Positions 21,992 through 29,242 of a stretch of DNA of 33,142 nt are shown here, piece after piece. The DNA is from Deltaproteobacteria bacterium (GTDB lineage Bacteria > Myxococcota_A > UBA9160 > UBA6930): assembly GCA_029261775.1 (NCBI GenBank), contig JAJDAR010000344.1, positions 1 through 33,142 on the forward strand. Direction: 5' to 3'. A program made the translations under genes and the position numbers. The notes under the pieces were generated by a model that had not been told where the DNA came from, did no database searches, and was given only the letters and a program-made list of their open reading frames with translations. Position 1 is the stretch's first letter. Each line of letters begins with the position of its first letter.

Positions 21992-22899
21992 AGCCGCACT
22001 TCGAGACGCTGAGCGTGATCGGCCTCGGGCTGCTGGGCGGCTCGCTGGTGGCCGCGGCACGCGAGCGGGGCCTGGCCGACCGCGTGATCGGCGTCAGTCG
22101 CCGCGCCGTCACGGCCGAGCAGGCGCTGGCCCGCGACATCGTCGACGAGGCGACGACCGACCTGGCCCGCGGCGTCCGCGGGGCCGACCTGGTCGTGCTG
22201 GCGACTCCGGTGTTCGCCATGGAGGAGGTGCTGCGCGCTGCGGTGCCGCACCTGCGCGAGGACGCCCTGGTCACCGACGTCGGGAGCGTCAAGGGCGCTC
22301 TGGCCGACACCTTGCCCGGCCTGCTGCCGCCGGGTGTGCGCTTCGTCGGCTCGCACCCCATGGCCGGCAGCCACGCCAGCGGGCTCGAGCACGCGCGGGC
22401 CGATCTGTTCGAAGGCGCGGCCTGCGTGGTCGCGCCCGGCTCCGAGCCCCGCGATACCGAGCGGCTGGTCGCGTTCTGGAAGGCGCTCGGCATGCGGGTC
22501 GAGCTGCGCGCCGCCGATCGGCACGACGAGGAGGTGGCCTGGATCAGCCACCTGCCTCACGCCGTGGCCTTCGCCTTCGCCCGGGCGCTCGAGCGCGCGC
22601 CGAGCGGCTCGGTCGCCCTGCGCGGCACCGGCTTCCGCGACTTCACGCGGGTGGCTCGCAGCGAGCCCGACCTCTGGGCCGACATCCTGGTCACGAACCG
22701 CAAGGCCCTGGCCGGGCCTCTTCACGAAATGAGCGAGCGGCTCGCCGAGCTGGCCCGCTGCATCGAAACCGGAGACCCCGACGCGGTCTCCGCCTATCTC
22801 AACGCTGCCGGGGACCAGCTCCAAGGCAGCGACGACGCCCGATCCGGGGGCGATAACCCGGAAATCCAGGCTGCCCCCGTGGCGGCCACCAAGGAGTGA
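21988..22899 (+). CDS. tyrA: prephenate/arogenate dehydrogenase TyrA
   Basis: TyrA oxidatively decarboxylates prephenate or arogenate on the way to tyrosine. The roughly 303-residue product has the dinucleotide-binding GLGLLGGSL, VTDVGSVKGAL, the catalytic GSHPMAGSHASG, and HLPHAVAFA. No ACT or mutase domain is fused. The end of the second strand reads GVSRR rather than having the Asp typical of NAD-specific forms, hinting at NADP use (inference). The GTG at 21988 overlaps the hisC stop (GTGA) with GGGAG 5 nt upstream; the ATG at 21973 is an alternative adding five residues. The tail of about 30 residues is low-complexity. rpsA follows within 11 bp. Confidence 0.93.
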   Translation: MKPHFETLSVIGLGLLGGSLVAAARERGLADRVIGVSRRAVTAEQALARDIVDEATTDLARGVRGADLVVLATPVFAMEEVLRAAVPHLREDALVTDVGSVKGALADTLPGLLPPGVRFVGSHPMAGSHASGLEHARADLFEGAACVVAPGSEPRDTERLVAFWKALGMRVELRAADRHDEEVAWISHLPHAVAFAFARALERAPSGSVALRGTGFRDFTRVARSEPDLWADILVTNRKALAGPLHEMSERLAELARCIETGDPDAVSAYLNAAGDQLQGSDDARSGGDNPEIQAAPVAATKE

Positions 22900-22910
22900 A
22901 GACACTTCAC

Positions 22911-24635
22911 ATGAATCAAGACGTAGCAACCGGCGGTTCTTTCGCCGAGCTCTTCTCGCAGACCGAGAAGAAGATCAAGGAAGGGGAGGTCGTCAAGGGA
23001 CGGATCCTCTCGATGGACGACGACCACGTACAGGTCGACGTCGGAGGGAAGTCCGAGGGGTTCGTGGACCTCTGGGAGTTCATGGACGAGCAGGGCAAGG
23101 TCCTCATCGCCGTAGGCGACGTGGTCGATGTCCTGGTCGAAGAGGCCGAGGACGACGAGGGCCGCATCGTGCTCTCGAAGGACAAGGCCGATCGGGTCAA
23201 GATCTGGGACCAGATCAGCGAGGCCTACGAGGCGGATCGAGCGGTCGAAGGCCGCATCCTCTCGCGGGTCAAGGGAGGGCTCTCCGTCGACATCGGCGTC
23301 AAGGCCTTCCTGCCGGGCTCCCAGGTCGATCTGCGACCCGTCCGGAACCTCGAGAACCTGCTCGGGGAACGCCTCGAGTTCAAGATCATCAAGTTCAACC
23401 AGCGTCGTGGGAACATCGTGCTCTCGCGTCGTGCGCTCCTCGAGAAGGAGCGTGAGACGATGCGGGCGACCACCCTGGAGACGCTCCAGGAGGGTCAGAT
23501 CATCGACGGCGTGATCAAGAACATCACCGACTACGGTGCGTTCATCGATCTCGGCGGCATCGATGGCCTGCTCCACGTGACCGACATGTCGTGGGGTCGC
23601 GTCAACCACCCGAGCGAGTTGTTCCGGGTGGGCGACGAGATCAAGGTCAAGGTGCTCAAGTTCGATCCCGAGAGCGAGCGGGTCTCGCTGGGTCTGAAGC
23701 AGATCCAGCCCGATCCGTGGGTGGATGCAGCGATGCGCGACCCGATCGGTGTGCGCGTGAACGGCAAGGCCGTCTCGCTCACCGACTACGGTGCGTTCAT
23801 CGAGCTCGAGCCCGGCATCGAGGGCCTGGTCCACGTCTCGGAGATGTCCTGGACCAAGCGGGTCAAGCACCCGTCGAAGGTCGTGAACATCGGCGAGCAG
23901 GTGGAGTCCGTGGTGCTCGACGTGGATGAGTACAACCGCAAGATCTCGCTCGGGATGAAGCAGATCGAGCCGAACCCGTGGGCCGTGATCGAGGAGAAGT
24001 ACCCGATCGGCACCCACGTCTCCGGCGAGATCCGCAACATCACGAACTTCGGGGTCTTCGTCGGCCTCGAAGAGGGGATCGACGGTCTGGTGCACGTCTC
24101 GGACATTTCGTGGACCGAGAACATCAAGCACCCGAGCGAGAAGTTCGAGAAGGGTGACGTCGTCCAGGCCGTCGTGCTGAAGATCGACCGGGAGAACGAG
24201 AAGTTCTCGCTGGGCATCAAGCAGCTCGAGGGCAATCCCTGGGACGACATCCTCAAGAAGTACCCGCTCGGGAGCGAGATCACCGGCGAGATCACGAACG
24301 TGGTGGACTTCGGCGCCTTCGTGAAGCTCGAAGAGGGCATCGAGGGGCTGATCTACAGCGCCGAGCTCGCCCAGGAACCGGTGGAGAAGCCTGCGGATGT
24401 CGTCAAGGCAGGCGACTCCGTGACGGCGGTGATCACGAAGGTGGACCCGGTGGATCAGAAGATCTCCCTGTCCATTCGAGCGCTGTCGGATCGCGAGCAG
24501 CGGGAGGCCCTCAAGAAGATGGCCGCCCAGCAGTCCGCGACCCAGACGGCGACCTTGGGCGATGTCGGTGCGCTGGCGAAGCTCAAGCAGAAGCTGGAGC
24601 AAGGCGGCGGCGACGACGCCGGTGAAGAGGGCTAG
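22911..24635 (+). CDS. rpsA: 30S ribosomal protein S1
   Basis: S1 binds mRNA on the small ribosomal subunit and unfolds it for initiation. The 574-residue product contains six S1 OB-fold repeats at about residues 24-90, 108-172, 193-262, 278-347, 365-434 and 452-520. Repeats 3-6 are the most regular (for example NITDYGAFIDLGGIDGLLHV and similar), as expected for RNA-binding repeats. The C-terminus is Gln/Lys-rich and acidic. The ATG at 22911 is preferred; a GTG at 22896 overlaps the tyrA stop and would add five residues, and AAGGAG lies 14 nt before the ATG. Its position after tyrA without aroA or cmk is unusual. Confidence 0.97.
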   Translation: MNQDVATGGSFAELFSQTEKKIKEGEVVKGRILSMDDDHVQVDVGGKSEGFVDLWEFMDEQGKVLIAVGDVVDVLVEEAEDDEGRIVLSKDKADRVKIWDQISEAYEADRAVEGRILSRVKGGLSVDIGVKAFLPGSQVDLRPVRNLENLLGERLEFKIIKFNQRRGNIVLSRRALLEKERETMRATTLETLQEGQIIDGVIKNITDYGAFIDLGGIDGLLHVTDMSWGRVNHPSELFRVGDEIKVKVLKFDPESERVSLGLKQIQPDPWVDAAMRDPIGVRVNGKAVSLTDYGAFIELEPGIEGLVHVSEMSWTKRVKHPSKVVNIGEQVESVVLDVDEYNRKISLGMKQIEPNPWAVIEEKYPIGTHVSGEIRNITNFGVFVGLEEGIDGLVHVSDISWTENIKHPSEKFEKGDVVQAVVLKIDRENEKFSLGIKQLEGNPWDDILKKYPLGSEITGEITNVVDFGAFVKLEEGIEGLIYSAELAQEPVEKPADVVKAGDSVTAVITKVDPVDQKISLSIRALSDREQREALKKMAAQQSATQTATLGDVGALAKLKQKLEQGGGDDAGEEG

Positions 24636-24707: not shown

Positions 24708-25031
24708 ATGACGAAGAGCGGACTCATCGAGAAGGTGGCGGAGCTGACCCCGCACATCTCGAAGAAGGATACGGAGATCGTGGTGAACACGATCTTCGAC
24801 TCGATGACGGATGCCCTCAAGGAGGGCGAGCGCATCGAGATCCGGGGCTTCGGCAGCTTCCAGGTCAAGGTTCGGGAGGCCCGCGAGGGGCGGAACCCGA
24901 AGACCGGGGAGGAAGTCCACATCCCCGCCAAGCGGACGCCGTTCTTCAAGGTCGGCAAGGAGCTGAAGGAGATGGTCGACAACTCCTCGGCGCCTCTCGA
25001 CGAATCGCCCGACGACGACTCGAACCTCTAG
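24708..25031 (+). CDS. ihfB: integration host factor beta-like DNA-bending protein
   Basis: The 107-residue HU/IHF-family protein starts MTKSGLIEKVAEL and has RIEIRGFGSFQVKVREAREG, followed by the DNA-intercalating arm GRNPKTGEEV with its Pro. These match IHF beta, and rpsA-ihfB is a conserved gene pair in Proteobacteria. It would bend DNA in recombination, replication and promoter architecture, usually as a heterodimer with IHF alpha; no partner gene is in the window. A tail of about 15 residues rich in Asp/Ser (LDESPDDDSNL) extends past the usual end. GGAGAG lies just before the ATG. Confidence 0.88.
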   Translation: MTKSGLIEKVAELTPHISKKDTEIVVNTIFDSMTDALKEGERIEIRGFGSFQVKVREAREGRNPKTGEEVHIPAKRTPFFKVGKELKEMVDNSSAPLDESPDDDSNL

Positions 25032-25079: not shown

Positions 25080-25427
25080 GTGAAGTGGCTGCGACGACTG
25101 ATCGTGCTCGCGCTGATGGTCGGCTTTGCGTACGTCTCCTATCGACTCCCGCAGGACAACGACGTGCTGGTCAACGTCGACCTGCTGGCCTGGCAGGCCC
25201 CCCCGGTTCCGCTGTGGGTAGCCCTCGGGCTGGCCTTCCTGGTCGGGGTGCTGTGCGCGAGTGCCGGGCTGCTCTTCCAGCTGGCGAAGAAGAGCCTGGT
25301 GGCGCGGCGCTATCGCAAGACCGTGCGCGGCCTCGAGGCCGAGATCCACAAGCTCCGCAACCTGCCGCTGGCCGGGGCGGAGGCTACGCCTGCGGCGGAG
25401 GAGTCGCCGGTCCCTGGCGCTCCGTGA
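25080..25427 (+). CDS. lapA: LapA-domain (DUF1049) inner-membrane protein
   Basis: This 115-residue protein has two membrane segments (about 6-22 and 45-68) separated by a short loop with NDVLVNVDLL. A cytosolic helix, KKSLVARRYRKTVRGLEAEIHKLRN, follows. This is the layout of LapA (YciS), which acts with LapB in controlling LPS synthesis through FtsH and LpxC in E. coli. The GTG start at 25080 follows CAGGAAGG. The LapB-like gene is 76 bp downstream, supporting the assignment. The C-terminus is Ala/Pro/Glu-rich. Confidence 0.82.
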   Translation: MKWLRRLIVLALMVGFAYVSYRLPQDNDVLVNVDLLAWQAPPVPLWVALGLAFLVGVLCASAGLLFQLAKKSLVARRYRKTVRGLEAEIHKLRNLPLAGAEATPAAEESPVPGAP

Positions 25428-25433
25428 GCCGGG

Positions 25434-25455
25434 GGCGAGGCAAGGTGACCTCGCC
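25434..25455. repeat. hairpin between lapA and lapB
   Basis: GGCGAGG and CCTCGCC form a perfect 7-bp stem around an 8-nt loop, beginning 6 nt after the lapA stop. It may stabilise the upstream mRNA or lower downstream expression. No T-run follows. Confidence 0.45.
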
Positions 25456-25503
25456 GGCCAGGCGCCGCGAGGGGGGCTCCGAGCCTGACCGGGCCGGCAG
25501 GCC

Positions 25504-26535
25504 ATGAGCTTCTGGCAGCGCGTCTTCCGCAAGGGGGAGTCACCGCAGGAGGCCCCGGACTCCGCGTTCCGCGAGGCCCTGCTGCGACTGCTCGACCGCG
25601 ACCTCGCGAGCGCGGAGGAGGCTCTCGTGCGCGCCGCGCAAGAGGACTCGTCGGACGTCGACGCCTTCCTCGCACTGGCCGCGCTGTATCGAACACGCGG
25701 CGAGATCGGCCGGGCGATCCGGATCCACCAGAACCTGCTGCTGCGCAGCGACCTCGGCGCCGTGAGTCGCGACGCGGCGCTGTCGGGGCTCGCCATGGAC
25801 TTCCAGCGCGGTGGGTTCCTGCAGCGCGCCATCGCGGCCTTCGAGGAGCTGCTGGAGCGAAATCCCCGCCACGAGGCCGCCCTGCGCGCGCTCGGCGAGT
25901 TGCACGGCGACGCCCGTGACTGGAAGCGCGCCCTCGAGATGTGCCGCCGACTGGCCAAGGTGACCGGCGAGGAGGCGCGGGTGGACGAGGCGGCCCTGTA
26001 CGTCCGGGCGGCGAATGCGGCCCAGGCGGAGGGACGCACCGACGACGCGCGCCGCGATCTGAAGAAGGCGCTGCGCCGGGATCCCGACCATGTCGACGCG
26101 TGGATCGCGCTCGGGGCGCTCGAGGCGGAGCGCGGCAAGGACAAGCGGGCGTTGGCGGCGTGGGCCAAGGTGCCCTCCATCGACCGGCGCGCCGGCCCCC
26201 GGGTCTACCCCCAGCTCGAGTCGAGCTTTGCCGCGGTCGGTCGGCCGCGCGAGTTCGAGACCTTCCTGCGCAAGCTGCTCGACGAGCGGCCCGGCGACGC
26301 GGCGGCGCGGCTCGCGCTGGTGCACTGCCTCCTCACGCGGGGCGACGCGGCCCTGGCGGAGACCGAGGCGCGGGCGCTGCTGGAGCGGGATCCGGCCAGC
26401 CTGGCCGGGCAGGGTGCCCTGCTGCGCGCACTGCTCGGCAAGGGCGAGACCGAGGCGGCCTTGAAGCAGGCGACCGAGCTACTGCAGGCCCTGGGACAGG
26501 CGGGCCTGCTGGACCACCGGGAGGCGCTCTTGTGA
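25504..26535 (+). CDS. lapB: LapB-like TPR protein without anchor or rubredoxin domain
   Basis: The 343-residue TPR-repeat protein matches the LapB (YciM) core: LAALYRTRGEIGRAIRIHQNLL, then LAMDFQRGGFLQRAIAAFEELLERNP, and RDWKRALEMCRRLAK. In E. coli LapB is tethered by an N-terminal membrane helix and ends in a four-Cys rubredoxin-like domain; it helps FtsH degrade LpxC and thus limits LPS synthesis. Here the N-terminus (SFWQRVFRKGESPQEAPD) is polar, and no CxxC pair exists. The protein is probably soluble, perhaps recruited by LapA. It is placed directly after lapA and before mutS. A generic TPR scaffold is the alternative. Confidence 0.78.
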   Translation: MSFWQRVFRKGESPQEAPDSAFREALLRLLDRDLASAEEALVRAAQEDSSDVDAFLALAALYRTRGEIGRAIRIHQNLLLRSDLGAVSRDAALSGLAMDFQRGGFLQRAIAAFEELLERNPRHEAALRALGELHGDARDWKRALEMCRRLAKVTGEEARVDEAALYVRAANAAQAEGRTDDARRDLKKALRRDPDHVDAWIALGALEAERGKDKRALAAWAKVPSIDRRAGPRVYPQLESSFAAVGRPREFETFLRKLLDERPGDAAARLALVHCLLTRGDAALAETEARALLERDPASLAGQGALLRALLGKGETEAALKQATELLQALGQAGLLDHREALL

Positions 26536-26563: not shown

Positions 26564-29242
26564 ATGAGTGGCGCAGCGAAATCGGCCCGCGACACGCCGA
26601 TGATGCGCCAGTACCTGGCGATCAAGGCGCAGGTGCCCGATGCCTTCCTCTTCTACCGGATGGGCGACTTCTACGAGCTGTTTCTCGACGACGCGGAGCG
26701 CGCGGCCCCGCTGCTCGACATCACGCTCACCACCCGCGACAAGAACAAGCCGGACCCGATCCCGATGTGTGGCGTGCCCGTGCACAGTGCCGACGGCTAC
26801 GTGCGCAAGCTCGCCGAGCTCGGGCACCGTGTGGCGATCTGCGAGCAGACCGAGGCTGCCAGCGCGAGCGGGCCCCGCAAGCTGGTGCGCCGCGAGGTGG
26901 TCGAGGTGGTCACACCGGGGCTGGTCGGCGACCCGGCCGGGCTGCCCGCGACCCGCGAGGTGGCGTTGGCGGCGCTCACGGCGAGTGAGCAGGGCCATGG
27001 GCTGGCCGCCCTCGACGCCTCGACCGGCCACTTCCGGGCGACCCGCTCTCATGCGGGCGAGCACCTGCCGGCAGAGCTGGTCGACGAGCTCGAGCGGATC
27101 GCTCCGCGCGAGCTGCTGCTCTCGGCCGAGCTCGCGCGCCGGCACGGTGAGAGCCTGCGAGAGCGGCTGGGGGAGACGGTGCTGCGCGAGACGGACGACG
27201 CGTCGTTCGCCGTCGAGTCCCTACCCGTGACCCCCCACGGGCTCGTCGCGGATCCGGCGGATCCGCGCATGACCGCGGCGGCGGGCATCCTCCGCTATCT
27301 CGCCGATCACCAGCCGGCCAGCCTGGGACAGGCGCCGCGCCTGCGCACCTACGAGCTCGGGGATGCGATGATCCTCGACGCGGCGACCTGCCGGCACCTG
27401 GAGCTGTTCGAGAGTCAGGAGGATCGCGGCCGCACCGGCACGCTGATCGAGCGGATCGACGACACGAAGACCGCGCTCGGTGCGCGCTGCCTGGCGCAGT
27501 GGATGGCCTATCCGCTGGTCTCGCCCGAGACGATCCGCGCGCGGCAGGACGGCGTGGCCGCGCTCGCGGAGCGCGACCGGGCACGCTCGCGCCTGCGCGA
27601 GGCGCTGCGCGGGGTGCGGGACCTGGAGCGGATCTTCGCGCGCTGCCAGCGGCCCGGTGCCGAGCCCCGGGACCTGGCGGCGCTGCGCGATTCGATTGCC
27701 GCGCTGCCCGACGTCGGCGCCGCCCTCGAGCTGGAGGCCGCGGAGCCGCTGGCGGGCACCCGCGCGCCGCTGCCGGCTCCCGCCCCCCTGCCCGAGCTGC
27801 AGACGCTCCTGCAGGAGGGCCTGGTGGAGCAGCCGAAGGCCCTGCCGCGCGGCTCGCGGGGTGCGCTCGAGACCGGCTACATCCGCGTGGGGTTCCGCGC
27901 CGAGCTGGACCACGTACGCGAGAGCGCGTCCAAGGGACGTGACTGGATGGCCGGGCTCGAGGCGTCGGAACGCGAGCGGACCGGCATCCCGAACCTGAAG
28001 GTGCGCTTCCACCCCGTCCATGGCTACTCGCTCGAGGTCACCAAGACGAACCTCGAGCGGGTGCCCGACGACTACGAGCGCCGCCAGACGCTCGCGAACG
28101 CGGAGCGCTACACGACCGCGGCCCTGCGCGAGATGGAGAGCTCGGTGCTCGGCGCCAACGAGCGCGCGGCGGGCCTCGAGCGCGAGATCTTCGAGGAGCT
28201 GCGGCAGGTCGCGCTCGCGGCCGCTGCCGAGATCCGCGCCGCGGCGGCGGCCGTCGCGGAGCTCGACGCCCTGCAGTCCCTGGCCGAGATCGCCCGCCGG
28301 GACGGCTGGGTGCGGCCGAGCGTGGACGAGGGCTGTGAGCTGCGGGTCCAGGCCGGGCGGCACCCCGTCGTCGAGGGCCTGATGAGCCGCAGCGGTGGGG
28401 AGTACGTTCCGAACGACACATCCCTCGATCCCGAGGACACACGCCTCCTGCTCATCACCGGACCGAACATGTCGGGCAAGAGCACGTACCTGCGCCAGGT
28501 CGCGATCCTGGTCCTGCTGGCGCAGATGGGCAGCTTCGTGCCGGCCGAGGCGGCCCACGTCGGCGTGGTCGATCGCGTGTTCACCCGGGTCGGCGCCTCG
28601 GACCGCCTGGCGCGCGGAGAGTCCACCTTCATGGTGGAGATGCGGGAGACGGCCGAGATCCTGGCGCAGGCGTCGCCGCGCAGCCTGATCATCCTCGACG
28701 AGATCGGGCGCGGAACCAGCACCTTCGATGGGCTGTCGATCGCCTGGGCCGTGGCCGAGTACCTGCACGACACCCCCGGTCTCGGGGCCCGCACCCTCTT
28801 CGCCACCCACTACCACGAGCTGGCCGATCTGGCCCACGCCCGTGCCGGGGTGCGCAACGCGCACTTCGAAGCGCGCGAGTGGAAGGAGGAGGTGCTCTTC
28901 TTGCGGCGGCTCGTCGAAGGGCCCGCGAACCGCTCCTACGGCATCCAGGTGGCGCGGCTCGCCGGCCTTCCCAGCCAGGTGGTCGAGCGCGCGCGGGAGA
29001 TCCTGGCTCGTCTCGAGAAGGACGAGCTCTCCGCCGATGGCAGGCCGCGCCTGGCGGCACCGGTGGACGCGCCCGAGCCGGGCGGGCAGCTGGCGCTGTT
29101 CTCGGGGGCCGCGAGCAGCGCGACGGAGCAGGCGGTGCTCGACGCGCTGCGCGCCAGCGATCCCGACACCTTGACGCCTCTCGAAGCGCTCCAGCGGCTG
29201 GCCGCCTGGCGGCAGCGGCTCGGTGACGAGGAAGACGCATGA
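26564..29242 (+). CDS. mutS: DNA mismatch repair ATPase MutS
   Basis: MutS recognises mispairs and starts repair. The 892-residue product has the mismatch-reading Phe36-Tyr-Glu38 in RMGDFYELFLDDAE, the connector, lever and clamp regions, and the ATPase with Walker A GPNMSGKSTYLRQ (about 633-645). The segment VGASDRLARGESTFMVEM, Walker B and signature LIILDEIGRGTSTFDGLS, and FATHYHEL complete it. A C-terminal region with PLEALQRLAAWR resembles the tetramer-forming end of long MutS1 proteins. GGGAGGAG precedes the ATG. Its stop overlaps the amidase start (ATGA). No mutL is in the window. Confidence 0.97.
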   Translation: MSGAAKSARDTPMMRQYLAIKAQVPDAFLFYRMGDFYELFLDDAERAAPLLDITLTTRDKNKPDPIPMCGVPVHSADGYVRKLAELGHRVAICEQTEAASASGPRKLVRREVVEVVTPGLVGDPAGLPATREVALAALTASEQGHGLAALDASTGHFRATRSHAGEHLPAELVDELERIAPRELLLSAELARRHGESLRERLGETVLRETDDASFAVESLPVTPHGLVADPADPRMTAAAGILRYLADHQPASLGQAPRLRTYELGDAMILDAATCRHLELFESQEDRGRTGTLIERIDDTKTALGARCLAQWMAYPLVSPETIRARQDGVAALAERDRARSRLREALRGVRDLERIFARCQRPGAEPRDLAALRDSIAALPDVGAALELEAAEPLAGTRAPLPAPAPLPELQTLLQEGLVEQPKALPRGSRGALETGYIRVGFRAELDHVRESASKGRDWMAGLEASERERTGIPNLKVRFHPVHGYSLEVTKTNLERVPDDYERRQTLANAERYTTAALREMESSVLGANERAAGLEREIFEELRQVALAAAAEIRAAAAAVAELDALQSLAEIARRDGWVRPSVDEGCELRVQAGRHPVVEGLMSRSGGEYVPNDTSLDPEDTRLLLITGPNMSGKSTYLRQVAILVLLAQMGSFVPAEAAHVGVVDRVFTRVGASDRLARGESTFMVEMRETAEILAQASPRSLIILDEIGRGTSTFDGLSIAWAVAEYLHDTPGLGARTLFATHYHELADLAHARAGVRNAHFEAREWKEEVLFLRRLVEGPANRSYGIQVARLAGLPSQVVERAREILARLEKDELSADGRPRLAAPVDAPEPGGQLALFSGAASSATEQAVLDALRASDPDTLTPLEALQRLAAWRQRLGDEEDA

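What the first reader, a model, noticed from the sequence alone, without database searches (positions are those of the whole stretch)
25080..26535. LapA-LapB pair in which LapB lost its membrane anchor and rubredoxin domain
The E. coli LapB membrane helix and four-Cys C-terminal domain are needed for LPS control through FtsH/LpxC. Here only the TPR core remains, next to a two-helix LapA. Either LapA recruits a soluble LapB, or the system works differently in this lineage.
Basis: partly seen in the sequence, partly recalled or inferred. Interest (0 to 1): 0.6.

Follow-up and report, generated by a model that had tools for sequence, protein, structure and literature searches.

The report
LapB without membrane anchor or zinc domain
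In a lineage of uncultured Myxococcota, the lipopolysaccharide-control protein LapB has lost two parts that are essential in E. coli, and a conserved motif in its partner LapA suggests that LapA now holds it at the membrane; this would give LapA a job, which is an open question.

Summary
Window 25504-26535 encodes a 343-aa, nine-TPR LapB directly after a two-helix LapA (25080-25427), in the order rpsA-ihfB-lapA-lapB-mutS. It has no transmembrane (TM) helix and no rubredoxin domain, and neither is encoded nearby. It is a true LapB: sequence, predicted fold and gene order all agree. No second LapB was found in the genome.

The form belongs to an order of Myxococcota (apparently the UBA9160 lineage). 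On the LapB tree the losses were stepwise: the TM was lost once at the base of the class, and the zinc domain once in this order. E. coli H181, which docks the rubredoxin, is present in 40/40 zinc-bearing and 0/49 zinc-less LapBs.

New clue: LapA's cytoplasmic helix ends in LRNLP. The motif is present in 94/99 LapAs paired with LapB and in 0/24 LapA-like proteins of LapB-less genomes. E. coli LapA lacks it.

Best reading: a reduced LapB tethered by LapA, with LpxC as probable client. YejM (DUF3413) is absent; FtsH is present. Against an LpxC-only role, some genomes keep LapB without lpxB, lpxC or lpxD. Tethering and LpxC handling are inferred, not shown. I call it a new variant of a known kind.

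The parts
22896..24635 (+). rpsA (ribosomal protein S1), upstream neighbour; marks the conserved block
   Evidence: ORF and S1 repeats; same neighbour in relatives and in full-length-LapB Magnetococcales
24708..25031 (+). ihfB (integration host factor beta), upstream neighbour
   Evidence: NCBIfam IHF-beta 132 bits, above cut-off 115
25080..25427 (+). lapA, two-helix inner-membrane protein
   Evidence: PF06305 E 7.9e-10; orthologues directly before lapB in 29 of 30 loci
25305..25370 (+). LapA cytoplasmic helix and motif, residues 76-97 (RRYRKTVRGLEAEIHKLRNLPL); proposed LapB-docking element
   Evidence: near-invariant columns; presence tracks LapB
25504..26535 (+). lapB, reduced form: nine TPRs only
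   Evidence: NCBIfam LapB 6.5e-56; AlphaFold2 pLDDT 91, nine helix pairs; Foldseek TM 0.66-0.73 to solved LapB
25504..25554 (+). LapB N-terminal stub, residues 1-17 (MSFWQRVFRKGESPQEA), in place of the TM helix; W/F plus R/K, predicted disordered
25657..25740 (+). TPR2, residues 52-79; best-kept repeat; its equivalent is needed for LpxC binding in Salmonella LapB
   Evidence: PMC11025326
25993..25995 (+). Ala164, aligned with E. coli LapB His181 (rubredoxin-docking residue)
   Evidence: role of H181 from PMC8745692
26536..26563 (+). 28-bp gap between lapB stop and mutS start; no room for a zinc domain
26564..29242 (+). mutS, downstream neighbour
   Evidence: in LapB-less relatives lapA is followed directly by mutS

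Best explanation
This is a true LapB that lost its TM helix (ancestrally in the class) and then its rubredoxin domain (in this order). It is a soluble or peripheral nine-TPR adaptor held at the inner membrane by LapA: LapA's second helix runs on into the cytoplasm and ends in an LRNLP motif that docks into LapB. [quoted passage not shown] Shown by computation: orthology, the two losses and their order, the loss of the rubredoxin-docking histidine, the LapA motif's link with LapB, and the presence of LpxC and FtsH. Inferred: the LapA-LapB contact, membrane localisation, LpxC binding and delivery to FtsH.
For: LapB models, LapB-specific fold and shared rpsA-ihfB-lapA-lapB order. One change each for TM and zinc loss on a 78-row tree, SH-aLRT 99. 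H181: 31/31 full-length, 9/9 TM-less with zinc, 0/49 zinc-less. LapA motif: strict pattern in 94/99 LapAs paired with LapB and 0/24 in LapB-less genomes; in G005, G007 and genus g24, lapB is cleanly absent between lapA and mutS and the LapA motif has decayed; an unpaired LapA paralogue in the window's genus also lacks it. TPR2 keeps 53% identity to E. coli against about 14-26% for the other repeats, and TPRs 1-4 suffice to bind LpxC in Salmonella (PMC11025326). LpxC and two FtsH-type M41 peptidase genes in the own genome. YejM absent in 19/19.
Against: Genus g25 (G032, G245) keeps reduced LapB and a motif-bearing LapA, yet no LpxC or LpxD was found in either, nor LpxB in G032. G078 and G111 keep full-length LapB with none of LpxB, LpxC or LpxD found. 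So LapB cannot serve LpxC alone, and TPR2 conservation is no proof of LpxC binding. The motif predates the TM loss, and E. coli LapA lacks it. The fused LapA-LapB model did not place the motif on LapB. On phylogenetically independent pairs the motif-LapB link has too few supported events for significance. In Salmonella, LapB without its TM fails to lower LpxC (PMC11025326).
Confidence: 0.5

Rival explanations
1. Soluble LapB acts as a direct LpxC-binding inhibitor or sequestering partner, not as an FtsH adaptor; LapA only concentrates it at the membrane.
For: In Salmonella, overproduced LapB lacking the TM partly restores LPS without lowering LpxC (PMC11025326); E. coli LapB inhibits LpxC directly (review PMC13333357); the E. 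coli TM helix contacts FtsH specifically (PMC9356133) and is gone here.
Against: In the E. coli complex the rubredoxin lies next to the LpxC substrate site, and that domain is missing here. No direct test.
Confidence: 0.2
2. The conserved task of LapA-LapB is a wider envelope-assembly scaffold whose clients are not limited to LPS enzymes; LpxC control is an added role, possibly absent here.
For: LapA-LapB kept in genus g25 and in G078 and G111 although the lipid A genes searched were not found; LpxC without LapB in G005, G007, G008 and G012; E. coli LapB co-purifies with many envelope enzymes (PMC12444477).
Against: Genus g24 lacks LpxB, LpxC and LpxD and has lost LapB too; most LapB-bearing genomes of the order hold LpxC. 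Draft genomes may miss genes.
Confidence: 0.2
3. LapB binds the membrane by itself through the short W/F- and R-rich N-terminal stub, and LapA is not the anchor.
For: The stub pattern occurs in 45 of 58 TM-less LapBs (37/49 and 8/9), resembling the juxtamembrane W..RR of E. coli.
Against: Predicted disordered in the window protein; absent in 13 of 58; does not explain why the LapA motif tracks LapB.
Confidence: 0.07
4. Artefact: truncated gene, wrong start or assembly error.
For: Draft metagenome-assembled genome.
Against: Same form in tens of independent assemblies with conserved gene order; no upstream open frame and no downstream space.
Confidence: 0.01

Closest known systems
E. coli LapB (YciM), PDB 4zlh, 7t6d, 8v24
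   Same: Nine TPRs in the same superhelix; TPR2 53% identical; encoded next to lapA
   Different: E. coli has an N-terminal TM helix (binds FtsH and YejM), a C-terminal rubredoxin and His181, all essential or reported as such; here all are missing
TM-less, zinc-bearing LapB of the sister order (L075, L084, L087, L088, L090, L095, G114 and others)
   Same: No TM, same W/R stub, same ihfB-lapA-lapB order, LapA with LR[TN]LP
   Different: Keeps the four-cysteine domain and the docking histidine; about 361-365 aa
E. coli LapA (YciS), Pfam LapA_dom PF06305
   Same: Two helices, small, cytoplasmic helical tail, first gene of the lapAB pair
   Different: E. coli tail (RKIKRLENQLSP) lacks the LRNLP motif
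Other TPR adaptors (PilW, PEP-CTERM PrsT and similar)
   Same: TPR repeats
   Different: Much weaker scores (PrsT 2.2e-19, PilW 1.6e-13 against 6.5e-56 for LapB) and no LapA neighbour

Membership tests
LapB (lipopolysaccharide assembly protein B) | LapB-type TPR core of nine repeats | tested here: met
   NCBIfam 6.5e-56, below equivalog cut-off; nine helix pairs, TM 0.66-0.73 to LapB and at most 0.49 to the other TPR folds in the listed top 50
LapB (lipopolysaccharide assembly protein B) | Encoded directly after lapA | tested here: met
   29 of 30 loci
LapB (lipopolysaccharide assembly protein B) | Groups with LapB on a tree, not with other TPR families | tested here: inconclusive
   Tree of LapBs only, no other TPR family included; the family choice rests on model scores and fold
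LapB (lipopolysaccharide assembly protein B) | N-terminal transmembrane helix | tested here: not met
LapB (lipopolysaccharide assembly protein B) | C-terminal rubredoxin domain with CxxC pairs, docked through His181 | tested here: not met
LapB (lipopolysaccharide assembly protein B) | Binds LpxC and stimulates its proteolysis by FtsH | not testable with these tools
   LpxC and FtsH genes present; binding not testable
LapA | LapA_dom and two membrane helices | tested here: met
   helices in the L067 model
E. coli-type YejM-LapB-FtsH circuit | YejM (DUF3413) antagonist present | tested here: not met
   0 of 19 genomes, E. coli control positive

The most novel reading that the evidence does not exclude
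LapA is the general membrane receptor of LapB: the LRNLP motif at the end of LapA's cytoplasmic helix docks on LapB. This LapA-LapB module, not LpxC proteolysis, is the conserved core; LapB's own TM and rubredoxin are dispensable additions, and in a few lineages the module persists without lipid A synthesis, with another client.
Probability: 0.3. Interest if true: 0.75.

Novelty: new variant of a known kind. Interest (0 to 1): 0.58.

Why it matters
In E. coli and Salmonella the membrane anchor is needed for LapB to control LpxC, and the anchor and rubredoxin are reported as essential, yet an order of bacteria does without both. This separates the ancestral task of LapB from later additions. 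LapA's role is an acknowledged open question (PMC12444477); the LRNLP motif makes it testable by point mutation. The few lineages with LapA-LapB but no detected lipid A genes point to a function beyond LpxC.

Tried and rejected
Unrelated TPR family: rejected by LapB model scores, fold and gene order. Second full-length LapB or separate LapB-type rubredoxin in the genome: not found; the one PF18073 hit is RadA. Hidden TM in the lapA-lapB gap: the frames of those 76 bp read out hold no hydrophobic stretch. Idea that the LapA motif arose to replace the TM: rejected, since lineages with full-length LapB carry it too. LpxC C-terminal tails: mostly small non-polar endings in this order, with and without LapB; uninformative. 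Mixing LapA-only and LapB-only rows misaligned. Independent-pairs test of motif against LapB: seven pairs on the best tree, one on supported branches, no power; under its relaxed pattern 84/85 with and 1/24 without LapB carry the motif. No paper found describing a TM-less, zinc-less LapB or the LapA motif, but only open-licence papers were searched.

Full report
Observation. The window carries rpsA (22896-24635), ihfB (24708-25031), lapA (25080-25427), lapB (25504-26535) and mutS (from 26564), all on the + strand. LapA matches Pfam LapA_dom at 7.9e-10. The 343-aa LapB has the NCBIfam LapB models as its five best hits (best 6.5e-56 over model positions 28-347 of 388; 190 bits, below that model's equivalog cut-off of 363), so the TM part and the rubredoxin part are the missing ends. 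The frame opens only five codons before the ATG, the last 60 residues hold no cysteine, and 28 bp separate it from mutS. The own genome has no other LapB: other matches are generic TPRs at 3.6e-6 or worse. The only Zn_ribbon_LapB hit above cut-off is in RadA.

Identity. AlphaFold2 on an alignment of 29 relatives gives pLDDT 91, nine helix pairs and a disordered first 16 residues. Foldseek finds solved LapB structures at TM-score (query) 0.66-0.73; the other TPR folds among the 50 listed hits reach at most 0.49. The rpsA-ihfB-lapA-lapB order is shared with full-length-LapB Magnetococcales.

Lineage and history. Close relatives are uncultured Myxococcota, including records labelled UBA9160 and UBA6930 (filing them under one class of that name is my reading). 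LapB is found in 34 of 41 genomes of the order sampled, and all those read in full lack both parts. In the phylum sample LapB occurs in 50 of 284 genomes: 40 in this order, 7 in another order of the class, 3 elsewhere. The sister order has LapB without TM but with the zinc domain (about 361-365 aa); the three other Myxococcota found (G041, G078, G111), Nitrospirota, Desulfobacterota-like records and Magnetococcales have both. On a 78-row tree the labels need two changes: the TM-less clade (58 rows) and the zinc-less clade (49 rows) each have SH-aLRT 99.

Docking histidine. In E. coli the rubredoxin docks on the TPRs, and changes that prevent docking, such as at His181, inactivate LapB (PMC8745692). 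This column is H in 31/31 full-length and 9/9 TM-less zinc-bearing LapBs, and in 0/49 zinc-less ones. TPR2, needed for LpxC binding in Salmonella LapB where TPRs 1-4 suffice (PMC11025326), is 53% identical to E. coli; other repeats 14-26%.

LapA. In the model of a relative (L067), LapA's second helix runs from the membrane into the cytoplasm and ends at the motif. The motif LE.E..LRNLP is near-invariant in this order. A strict pattern is found in 94 of 99 LapAs beside any LapB form; the five others are near variants (LRKMP, LRTVP, RNLAL). It is found in 0 of 24 LapA-like proteins from LapB-less genomes: six in this order and 18 in other Myxococcota. In G005, G007 and four genomes of genus g24, lapA is followed directly by mutS and its tail has decayed. 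A second, unpaired LapA-like protein in the window's genus also lacks the motif. The link is not statistically established on independent branches, and E. coli LapA lacks the motif although E. coli has LapB.

Function. LpxC and two M41 (FtsH-type) peptidase genes are in the own genome; YejM is absent in 19 of 19 genomes with E. coli as positive control. In E. coli the LapB TM makes specific contact with FtsH (PMC9356133), and YejM sequesters LapB through it (PMC13333357). In Salmonella a TM-less LapB does not lower LpxC but partly restores LPS (PMC11025326). A TM-less LapB therefore needs another route to the membrane or acts as an inhibitor. LapA is the obvious candidate tether; this is inference.

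Limits. Genus g24 lacks LpxB, LpxC, LpxD and LapB together. But genus g25 keeps reduced LapB with no LpxC or LpxD found (G032, G245; LpxB also not found in G032), a related genome (L059) gave no LpxD, and G078 and G111 keep full-length LapB with none of the three found. G005, G007, G008 and G012 have LpxC without LapB. TPR2 keeps its signature in the g25 LapBs, so its conservation does not prove LpxC binding. All are draft genomes. For G003 and G039, which lack LpxC but have LpxB and LpxD, an assembly gap is likely.

Verdict. A genuine, secondarily reduced LapB that misses two features of the family as defined in E. coli: a new variant of a known kind. The fresh lead is the LapA motif.

Noticed in passing
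G030, G110, G135, G257 (genus g24); L213-L216: No LpxB, LpxC, LpxD or LapB found; LapA kept but with decayed motif; lapA followed directly by mutS.
   Followed up: partly
G032, G245 (genus g25), genome of L059; also G078, G111 (L166, L167): LapA-LapB retained although lipid A genes were not found (LpxC and LpxD in G032, G245, G078, G111; LpxB in G032, G078, G111; only LpxD tested in the L059 genome). Suggests a task beyond LPS, or recent loss.
   Followed up: partly
G000:C550 (L238), G004:C503 (L239), G001:C39 (L240): A second LapA-like membrane protein in three of the five genomes of the window's genus searched, lacking the LRNLP motif.
   Followed up: partly
G008, G012 (genus g5): LpxC and LpxB present, but neither LapA nor LapB found.
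   Followed up: no
G000:C104 and G000:C148: Two FtsH-type M41 peptidase genes in the own genome.
   Followed up: no
L037 and L170-L196, LpxC C-termini: LpxC tails in this order mostly end in small non-polar residues (such as PARASA, VRATA), with and without LapB.
   Followed up: partly
window 25504-25554 and relatives: W/F- and R-rich N-terminal stub in 45 of 58 TM-less LapBs, resembling the E. coli juxtamembrane stretch.
   Followed up: partly
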